From NCBI RefSeq assembly GCF_036226525.1, contig NZ_CP108487.1, positions 372,001-436,000 of the forward strand: 64,000 bases of DNA, read 5' to 3'. A program made the position numbers and the translations under genes. Under the pieces are notes generated by a model. That model searched no databases, had not been told where the DNA came from, and was given only the letters and a program-made list of their open reading frames with translations. This DNA comes from Kribbella sp. NBC_01245. Its GTDB lineage: Bacteria; Actinomycetota; Actinomycetes; Propionibacteriales; Kribbellaceae. Numbering within the stretch: position 1 is the first letter of the stretch; every line of letters starts with the position of its first letter. Below, one piece after another: positions 37,625 through 40,033 of the stretch.

Positions 37625-38437
37625 TTGACGAATCACCGCATTCCGGTCTGGGTAAAAGCCCTAGACCCGCTATCCCAGTTCGGCCTCGTACACGCCCTAC
37701 GCCAGCGCCCGGAGATCGCCCTACTCACCGACGCCGACCTGGCCCAGCTAACCCCACCGACCGCCCACACCCGCACGGCCACCGCCCCCAACGGCCACGC
37801 GGCCGCCGGTTCCAACGGTCACGCCATCCCGGGGGCTAACGGTCACGCTGTCGCCGGCTCCAACGGTCACGCGGTTGCCGCGCCCGCGGTCGCGGCACCT
37901 GCCGTGCACAGGCGGCCCCTCACTGGCCCGCCCGTGATCGGCCTGATCGCGGCCGACTCGCTCGACCCCGTCGCCATCCAGGTACTGCGCGCCGCCACCA
38001 AACGCGGTTGCCGCCGTACCGTCCTGATCGGTGGCACCATCGACGACGAGGCCCTGATGACCGCCGTCGAGCTCGGAGTCTCCGGCGTACTCCGCCGCTC
38101 CGACGCCACCGCCGACCGGATCGTGCACCTAGTGCGGTCAGCTGCCGCCGGCGACGGCAGCCTGCCCCCGGACCTACTCGGCCGGCTCCTCGGCCAGGTC
38201 TCCCGCATGCAACGCCACGTACTAGCACCGCGCGGCCTATCCCACACAGGCCTATCCGACCGCGAAACCCAAGTCCTCCGCCTAGTCGCCGACGGCAAGG
38301 ACACCCAGGAGATCGCCCGCGAACTCTCCTACTCCGAACGCACCGTCAAAAACGTCCTCCACGACGTAACCAGCCGCCTCCACCTCCGCAACCGCTCCCA
38401 CGCCGTCGCCTACGCCCTCCGCGAAGGCCTCATCTAG
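37625..38437 (+). CDS. atypical response regulator with LuxR DNA-binding domain
   Basis: About 270 residues. The N-terminus ('RIPVWVKALDPLSQFGLVHALRQRPEI') begins like a NarL-type receiver, is interrupted by four NGHA octapeptide repeats, then resumes ('VIGLIAADSLDPVAIQVLRA...'). The C-terminus is a LuxR helix-turn-helix ('LSDRETQVLRLVADGKDTQE...SYSERTVKNVLHDV'). The classical phosphoacceptor pocket is not clear, so it may be an orphan, phosphorylation-independent regulator. TTG 37625 follows GGGGGAG by eight bases; ATG 37574 and GTG 37616 are in-frame alternatives. No histidine kinase is adjacent. Confidence 0.8.
   Translation: MTNHRIPVWVKALDPLSQFGLVHALRQRPEIALLTDADLAQLTPPTAHTRTATAPNGHAAAGSNGHAIPGANGHAVAGSNGHAVAAPAVAAPAVHRRPLTGPPVIGLIAADSLDPVAIQVLRAATKRGCRRTVLIGGTIDDEALMTAVELGVSGVLRRSDATADRIVHLVRSAAAGDGSLPPDLLGRLLGQVSRMQRHVLAPRGLSHTGLSDRETQVLRLVADGKDTQEIARELSYSERTVKNVLHDVTSRLHLRNRSHAVAYALREGLI
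37790..37885 (+). repeat. in-frame 24-bp tandem repeat, four units
   Basis: Four 24-base units encode NGHAAAGS, NGHAIPGA, NGHAVAGS and NGHAVAAP inside the response-regulator gene. The unit is a multiple of three, so copy number can change without a frameshift. Confidence 0.85.
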
Positions 38438-38464: not shown

Positions 38465-38938
38465 ACGGTCAGACCCAAAATGCGGCCCCGCCTGTGGACA
38501 CCACTACGACGGTCGGACGCGAAATGCGGCCCGCCGGTGGGCACCCCCTGCGACGGCCCCTGCGACGGTCGGACCCAAAATGCGGCCCGTCTGCGAACAC
38601 CGCCACGACGGTCGGACGCAGAATGCGGCTCGCCTGTGGATACCCCTGCGACGGTCGGACGCGGAATGCGGGGCGCCTGTGGATACCGAGCCCACGGCCC
38701 CTAGGCCCGAACCGCACACATGCGGGCGAATTTGTGCAAAACCCTCCCGCGAGGTGCCTCCTTGTGTCGCGCGTGTGCAAACACAACAAGGCACCTCGCG
38801 GGGGAGTTATCCCCAGATTGGCTTGGGCGTATGGCATTCCGCGTCCGACCGTGGCAGCGATATCCACAGGCGCCCCGCATTTTGGGTCCGACCGTCGCAG
38901 GGGTGTCCACAGGCGGGCCGCATTTCGCGTCCGACAGT
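38465..38938. repeat. composite repeat field: five direct and three inverted ~37-bp units
   Basis: Direct units start at 38465, 38509, 38565, 38608 and 38651. Inverted units are at 38834-38852 (half), 38859-38895 and 38902-38938. The core reads ACGGTCGGAC(G/C)C, then (A/G)AATGCGGC, then a (G/C)GCCTGTGGA(C/T)ACC end. A hairpin (38744-38806) lies between the two sets. Several units carry nonamers one base from a DnaA box. The 612-base gap 38438-39049 contains no gene I can support. Confidence 0.85.
38744..38806. repeat. central hairpin of the repeat field
   Basis: Arms 38744-38767 and 38781-38806 (24 and 26 nt) share CGCGAGGTGCCT and its complement, with a 13-nt loop. It is immediately followed by TTATCCCCA (38807-38815). 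Confidence 0.75.
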
Positions 38939-38950
38939 GGCAGGGGAAAC

Positions 38951-38991
38951 GCCGGTGTGGAACCGCCGGTGTGGAACCGCCGGTGTGGAAG
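38951..38991. repeat. 14-bp minisatellite, three copies
   Basis: GCCGGTGTGGAACC is repeated head to tail at 38951 and 38965, with a third, slightly divergent copy from 38979. Confidence 0.8.
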
Positions 38992-39019
38992 CGCCCGAGC
39001 GGCAGCCCGCCTGCGGTTC

Positions 39020-39057
39020 GTAGGACCAACTCAGCGGCGTAGGACCCGCTTAGCGGC
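39020..39057. repeat. 19-bp tandem duplication over a stop codon
   Basis: GTAGGACC..(A/G)CT(C/T)AGCGGC occurs at 39020-39038 and 39039-39057. The second copy contains the TAA (39050-39052) of the minus-strand gene, so the duplication extends from inside that gene into the repeat field. Confidence 0.7.
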
Positions 39058-40033
39058 GTTGGTGCCAGTCGATTCGGGCGAGGTTGGGGAGGCCGGCCAT
39101 CGGGTCTGGGTTCACGATGCCGACGTCGATCCGGGTCGTGCCGGGGCTCGGCGTCAGCCCGCCACCACCCATTTGGTCGGCGGGGGCATCGAGGAGTTTG
39201 CCGGCCTTGTCGCGTACTTGGGTCTCGACCTGGACCTTGTCGCCCTTGCGGAACACCGTCGACTTGTCCCAGGTCTCCAGGTAGACGTACCCGTCGACCG
39301 CATCCCCGACGTACCAAGGCCCGGCCTTGCCGTTCACGAGGATGCGCTGGCGCATGGTCGCGACCCGCTCGTCGACCCGGTACCAGCTGTACATGGCGAA
39401 GAAGGACGGTTTCGCATCCAGCGAGACGTGCCCCGTCTGGGACATCCCCTCGGTCGGCGCGGCCGGGTGGGTCCGGTCGGGCGGGTTGAGCCTGATCTTG
39501 TGTGCGGCGGCGGCAGCCGGATCACCACCGACGACCGCGGCCTCGAACTGCGGTTGGCCCGCGATGAACCGCCCGACGCAGCCGTAGATCAGGCCGCTCC
39601 GAGCGTCGGTGACGGTGAGGGTGAGCCTGGTCGGGTACTTGCCCGAGCCACGCGATCGCAGCGGATGGGCGATGTCGCCGACGATGCCGTTCGGGACCAC
39701 CTGCCGAAGACAACCGGCCGCGGCCGCCGCGCGTTCGCTCGCCTTGAGCCGTCCGACGGTGAGGGAAATGCTCTCCTCAGCAGGCGCGACGGCCGTCCGG
39801 GAAGTAACAGCCGTCTGGGAAGTAGAGGCCACTGGCGGTTGATCGGGCAACAGCTCAGCGGCACCACCACGCGAGGCCACGAACAACCCGCCCGCGACGA
39901 CTGCCACCGAAGCGGCCGCCGCGACCGGGATCAGCCAGGTACGACGTACCGGGTGGTTGCCGTCGGCAAGTACTTGGTCGAGCACGGCCTGCGGTTGCGG
40001 GAGCCGTCGTTCGGCCGGAGGCTTGAGCGTCAT
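39050..40033 (-). CDS. single-pass membrane protein linked to an ECF sigma factor
   Basis: A 327-residue protein with a short cytoplasmic N-terminus, one transmembrane helix (about 33-54, 'WLIPVAAAASVAVVAGGLFV') and an extracellular domain of about 270 residues without a recognised motif. It is translated with the sigma gene (four-base overlap), the usual place for an anti-sigma factor. However, no HxxxCxxC zinc motif is seen and the cytoplasmic part is only ~30 residues. It may be a non-classical regulator or a sensor/effector. Confidence 0.78.
   Translation of the reverse strand: MTLKPPAERRLPQPQAVLDQVLADGNHPVRRTWLIPVAAAASVAVVAGGLFVASRGGAAELLPDQPPVASTSQTAVTSRTAVAPAEESISLTVGRLKASERAAAAAGCLRQVVPNGIVGDIAHPLRSRGSGKYPTRLTLTVTDARSGLIYGCVGRFIAGQPQFEAAVVGGDPAAAAAHKIRLNPPDRTHPAAPTEGMSQTGHVSLDAKPSFFAMYSWYRVDERVATMRQRILVNGKAGPWYVGDAVDGYVYLETWDKSTVFRKGDKVQVETQVRDKAGKLLDAPADQMGGGGLTPSPGTTRIDVGIVNPDPMAGLPNLARIDWHQRR

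What the first reader, a model, noticed from the sequence alone, without database searches (positions are those of the whole stretch)
38465..38938. Symmetric repeat field with DnaA-box-like nonamers
Five direct and three inverted copies of a ~37-bp unit face each other across a hairpin in 475 bp with no gene. Nonamers one mismatch from actinobacterial DnaA boxes (TTGTCCACA/TTATCCACA) occur at 38493-38501, 38635-38643, 38678-38686, 38860-38868 and 38903-38911, and TTATCCCCA at 38807-38815. A DnaA-titrating box cluster outside oriC is known in Streptomyces. This could be an analogous titration site, a partition-like site or a mobile repeat family. Copies on the two sides point in opposite directions, unlike a CRISPR or simple satellite.
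Basis: partly seen in the sequence, partly recalled or inferred. Interest (0 to 1): 0.7.

Follow-up and report, generated by a model that had tools for sequence, protein, structure and literature searches.

The report
Foldback-like intergenic palindromic repeat element
The repeat field is one of about sixty scattered copies of a species-specific palindromic DNA repeat that sits between genes and appears to be a mobile or selfish element, not a store of binding sites for the replication initiator DnaA.

Summary
The field is real: five inward-pointing units at 38467-38671, a strong hairpin at 38744-38804, and three units in the opposite direction at 38832-38936. It is not unique. The same 8.68 Mb genome holds 182 units and about 50 hairpin cores in about 60 intergenic regions. 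Neither occurs above chance in congeners; a covariance model of the hairpin finds none in 37. Every unit pair spanning a core faces inward (24 of 24). Tandem units repeat every 43 bp (less often 33). Elements favour convergent gene ends and avoid divergent promoters, and a congener has a clean empty site. The DnaA-box reading fails: the unit's conserved part is ACGGTCGGACGCRRAATGCGG, only 54 of 174 units keep CTGTGGA, and only 4 carry an exact TTRTCCACA; oriC has its own box cluster elsewhere. Best reading: a lineage-specific, REP/BIME-like non-autonomous palindromic element with foldback architecture (tandem direct repeats forming long inverted arms around a hairpin). One IS110 copy sits inside such a hairpin; its sisters sit in a second hairpin family. 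No linked RAYT transposase or GTAG/CGTC tag was found, so it works like a REP/BIME but is not shown to be one.

The parts
38465..38488 (+). Unit 1 of left arm
   Evidence: 1 mismatch
38509..38532 (+). Unit 2 of left arm
38565..38588 (+). Unit 3 of left arm
38608..38631 (+). Unit 4 of left arm
38651..38674 (+). Unit 5 of left arm, innermost
38719..38830 (.). Conserved hairpin core, one of about 50 in the genome; its loop is in the minus orientation
   Evidence: (-59 kcal/mol, z -5.4)
38744..38804 (.). Main stem-loop: CCCGCGAGGTGCCT .. loop .. AGGCACCTCGCGGG with an internal mismatch
38829..38852 (-). Unit 6, right arm, innermost
   Evidence: 2 mismatches
38872..38895 (-). Unit 7, right arm
38915..38938 (-). 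Unit 8, right arm
37625..38437 (+). Left flanking gene, LuxR-type regulator, 3' end towards the field
39050..40033 (-). Right flanking gene (no Pfam match; follows an ECF sigma factor gene), 3' end towards the field

Best explanation
It is one copy of a lineage-specific, non-autonomous palindromic intergenic repeat that works like REP/BIME or MITE elements but has a foldback layout. A hairpin core of about 100 bp is flanked on both sides by variable numbers of a tandem unit of about 43 bp, all pointing inward, so each strand can fold back into one long hairpin. Shown: family size, layout, lineage restriction, intergenic and 3'-end bias, an empty site in a congener, an IS110 inside one core. 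Inferred: copies spread through a trans-acting transposase or another single-strand/foldback route; the arms lengthen and shorten by tandem slippage or unequal recombination; selection removes copies from genes and promoters; surviving copies are largely neutral and may act as bidirectional RNA hairpins at gene ends and as landing pads for IS elements.
For: 182 unit copies (reversed control 3) and about 50 hairpin cores in the own genome; 0-5 units per relative, at control level, and zero cores in 37 congeners with a covariance model. 24 of 24 opposite-strand pairs at 150-260 bp face inward; 98 of 106 close neighbours share orientation; pitch 41-46 or 33 bp. No cluster is centred in a predicted gene. 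Among gaps of at least 100 bp, convergent ones are enriched (odds ratio 7.5, p 3e-7) and divergent ones depleted (odds ratio 0.15, p 2e-6). Empty site: the L044 array lies in a 422-bp gap, the orthologous gap in G032 is 100 bp without an array. One IS110 copy is inserted in a core stem at CACCT^CGCGGG and an IS3-type element in a unit with a 3-bp GAC duplication. REPs show the same convergent/tandem bias (PMC3733652) and are targets of an IS110-family element (PMC8450116).
Against: No cognate transposase was identified: the only Y1 transposase hit is a partial match with no repeats beside it, and flanking genes share no family apart from IS genes. Element ends and target duplications are not defined. 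Copies are diverged (mean column identity 84%), so no recent transposition is shown. Only one empty site was clean. The 21-bp core of the unit is very conserved and its pitch is close to whole helical turns, which could mean selection for protein binding.
Confidence: 0.75

Rival explanations
1. Protein-binding arrays with a host function (chromosome organisation, segregation, or gyrase/nucleoid-protein binding as in BIME-2): a dimeric or cooperative protein binds ACGGTCGGACGCRRAATGCGG every 3 or 4 helical turns, the array being oriented by the central hairpin.
For: The unit core is far better conserved than its linker, including A (95%) and C (99%) at two positions outside the search pattern. 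Pitch clusters at 33 and 43 bp, one helical turn apart, and orientation is strictly inward. Elements are spread evenly around the chromosome (KS p 0.09-0.14).
Against: Absent from all 37 congeners, so no conserved cellular role. Unit number varies from 0 to 14 per arm and several cores have none. No oriC/ter polarity.
Confidence: 0.15
2. Bidirectional transcription terminators or mRNA 3'-end stabilisers kept at convergent gene pairs.
For: Convergent enrichment and promoter avoidance; very stable hairpin.
Against: No U-tract terminator signature in the window field. At L044 a separate terminator-like hairpin precedes the array (my reading of the sequence). Many copies lie in tandem gaps. Does not explain the unit arrays.
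Confidence: 0.07
3. A DnaA titration site made of a DnaA-box cluster.
For: Six one-mismatch nonamers in 475 bp. Some cores elsewhere in the family carry an exact TTATCCACA in the stem arm.
Against: Nonamer kept in a minority of units: exact CTGTGGA 54 of 174, exact TTRTCCACA 4 of 174. In this field no box is exact. Cores often carry TTATCCCCA or TTTTGCACA instead. oriC has its own ordinary cluster.
Confidence: 0.03

Closest known systems
REP/BIME elements and REPINs (PMC2817692, PMC3116915, PMC3733652)
   Same: Lineage-restricted, intergenic, palindromic, many copies; between convergent or tandem genes; clusters in mosaic arrays; used as insertion targets by IS elements.
   Different: Core is a 60-100 bp hairpin rather than 20-40 bp; no GTAG or CGTC foot seen; no linked RAYT; units form head-to-tail direct arrays facing one centre instead of alternating orientations.
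Foldback transposons of eukaryotes, such as Tetris of Drosophila virilis (PMC4079207; title and abstract seen)
   Same: Long inverted arms made of tandem direct repeats around a central segment.
   Different: Bacterial, about 0.1-1 kb, the centre is itself a hairpin, no transposase known. Resemblance of layout only; no homology claimed.
DnaA box cluster of Streptomyces coelicolor and datA-like sites (mentioned in PMC4585315)
   Same: Intergenic cluster of DnaA-box-like nonamers in an actinobacterium.
   Different: About 60 loci, non-conserved nonamers, far from oriC, restricted to one lineage.
REP sequences as targets of IS110-family elements (ISPpu9, PMC8450116; IS621 and bridge RNA, PMC11208160)
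   Same: IS110 copies sit at one fixed position in palindromic repeat arms.
   Different: Most copies here are in a second hairpin family of this genome; only one is in the family studied.

Membership tests
REP/BIME/REPIN | High-copy extragenic palindrome | tested here: met
   About 50 cores and 182 units, intergenic
REP/BIME/REPIN | GTAG or CGTC unpaired tag at the foot of the hairpin | tested here: not met
   Read from the core consensus: the foot is ATTTGTGGAAAACCCT / AGGGTTWTCCACAAAT, no tag
REP/BIME/REPIN | Cognate RAYT (Y1 transposase) flanked by the repeats | tested here: not met
   One partial PF01797 hit (27.7 bits, 1478393-1478581) and no repeats in the surrounding 10 kb
REP/BIME/REPIN | Units in alternating orientation (BIME) | tested here: not met
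   98 of 106 close neighbours are in the same orientation
Foldback-type element | Inverted arms made of tandem direct repeats | tested here: met
Foldback-type element | Defined ends with target-site duplication and a transposase source | tested here: inconclusive
   Ends could not be fixed; no transposase found
DnaA-box titration cluster | Several exact or near-exact DnaA boxes conserved across copies | tested here: not met
   4 of 174 units with an exact box; none exact in the field
DnaA-box titration cluster | Binds DnaA in vitro or in vivo | not testable with these tools
   Needs gel shift or ChIP-seq

The most novel reading that the evidence does not exclude
A bacterial class of foldback mobile element whose tandem 21-bp motifs, phased at 3 or 4 helical turns and always facing a central hairpin, are binding sites for an unidentified trans-acting transposase or nucleoid protein of this lineage, the arms growing as tandem arrays.
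Probability: 0.25. Interest if true: 0.6.

Novelty: new variant of a known kind. Interest (0 to 1): 0.4.

Why it matters
It removes a tempting but wrong DnaA-titration lead, and adds a REP-like family in an actinobacterium with an unusual foldback layout and no known mobiliser. If the mobiliser were found, it would offer a bacterial counterpart to foldback transposons and a case for how tandem arms arise.

Tried and rejected
CRISPR, satellite or coding repeat: rejected because units face inward, the pitch of 43 bp is not a multiple of 3, and the copies are intergenic. Known RNA family: only sub-threshold microRNA-type matches to the hairpin. Plasmid or phage origin: no match in plasmids, phages or viral contigs. 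Matches in other phyla are nearly all lone sites, taken as chance. An autonomous parent element: no common flanking gene family except IS genes (small clusters of other paralogues were not examined further). Analogous family in a congener: no hairpin stem recurs at three or more loci in 311 kb of G032. Covariation as proof of an RNA structure: uninformative because the stem is almost invariant.

Full report
Observation. The window field is as described. Five direct units (cores at 38467, 38511, 38567, 38610, 38653) and three inverted ones (38832, 38875, 38918) face each other across a hairpin at 38744-38804. The period is 43 bp rather than 37. As a single strand the whole field folds to -340 kcal/mol against a shuffle mean of -234 (z -14.6); the core alone gives z -5.4.

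Family in the own genome. The window lies at 372001-436000 of an 8.68 Mb single-contig genome. Pattern GGTCGGACSCRRAATGCGG with up to 2 mismatches gives 104 forward and 78 reverse matches, against 3 for the reversed control. The clusters found were fetched and mapped. Each full element is [unit >]n - hairpin core - [< unit]m. Of neighbouring units 150-260 bp apart, 24 are '+ -' and none '- +'; of neighbours under 90 bp, 98 of 106 share orientation; the pitch is mostly 41-46 bp, with a second class at 33 bp. Unit number per arm runs from 0 to 14. Elements sometimes stand two in a row.

Core. 49 cores were aligned after orienting them by their asymmetric loop, 45 of them in the final alignment. 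Consensus: ATTTGTGGAAAACCCTCCCGCGAGGTGCCTnGTTGTG TTTGCACACGCGCGA CACAACnAGGCACCTCGCGGGAGGGTTATCCACAAAT. The stem is nearly invariant, so covariation can neither support nor refute an RNA structure. Some cores have no units; several of those share a conserved right flank, and some lie beside a second hairpin type (CCGCGAGTGGTC..GACCACTCGCGG).

Distribution. The unit occurs 0-5 times in each of 57 relatives, like the reversed control; the hairpin half-site likewise. A covariance model of the core finds about 50 places in the own genome and none in 37 congeners at E 0.001. No plasmid, phage or viral contig matches; the 21 exact pattern matches in genome contigs are isolated sites in unrelated taxa. 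The orthologous LuxR gene in 23 congener loci is followed by an ordinary short hairpin or another gene, with no such field. At L044 both flanking genes are adjacent in congener G032: the gap is 100 bp there and 422 bp here.

Gene context. Using my own codon-usage gene calls, elements occupy 60 intergenic regions and no cluster is centred in a gene. Against element-free gaps of at least 100 bp in the same loci, convergent gaps are enriched (odds ratio 7.5, p 3e-7) and divergent ones depleted (0.15, p 2e-6); positions are compatible with a uniform spread along the chromosome. REPs show the same bias (PMC3733652).

DnaA test. In 174 units the conserved part is ACGGTCGGACGCRRAATGCGG; CTGTGGA is exact in 54, and an exact TTRTCCACA is present in 4. 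The search pattern lies inside the conserved part, which biases that comparison, but the A and C at -2 and -1 (95% and 99%), outside the pattern, are conserved too, whereas the nonamer is not. oriC was located through dnaA and has a normal cluster of exact and one-mismatch boxes at 5760.7-5761.3 kb. The titration reading is therefore rejected on sequence grounds; binding itself was not testable.

IS targeting. Six copies of a 1571-bp IS110 element (PF01548 and PF02371), identical over the part compared, were located. All six right junctions read ACTCGCGG. Five left junctions could be read: four end in GACCACT (second hairpin family) and one in GGCACCT, inside a core of the family studied here; the sixth left end is disrupted by another IS. 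An IS3-type element sits in a unit with a 3-bp GAC duplication. This parallels ISPpu9 in REPs (PMC8450116).

Conclusion. The element works like a REP/BIME or MITE: lineage-restricted, intergenic, palindromic, used as an IS target. It is not filed as a REP because the tag, the RAYT link and the alternating layout were tested and not met. The layout is that of a foldback element (compare PMC4079207), by resemblance only. How it moves is inferred; a host-bound array remains possible at low probability. The genus was not named by the tools; Kribbella is my inference from genome size and kinship.

Noticed in passing
L250-L255; IS110 at G000 8071347-8072917 and five sister copies: An IS110-family element with six copies inserts at one fixed position in palindromic repeats (CCACT^CGCGG or CACCT^CGCGG). 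Its non-coding end upstream of the transposase contains CCGCGAGT on the transposase strand, matching the target, as expected of a bridge-RNA guide; the guide itself was not modelled.
   Followed up: partly
L171, L175, L181, L182, L185, L251-L255: A second intergenic hairpin family (CCGCGAGTGGTC .. GACCACTCGCGG), sometimes directly beside the first family's cores; its distribution in relatives was not tested.
   Followed up: partly
L068, about G000 5228369-5228816: One array has 14 units at a 33-bp pitch instead of 43 bp, a local tandem expansion.
   Followed up: no
window 38945-39000 and 39019-39056: A 14-bp tandem repeat (GGAACCGCCGGTGT, about three copies) directly outside the right arm, and a pair of 19-bp repeats just beyond it.
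   Followed up: no
L177, G000 2497804-2500052: A hairpin core split by more than 2 kb that carries an IS30-like transposase gene (HTH_38, rve) and several other short palindromic repeats.
   Followed up: partly
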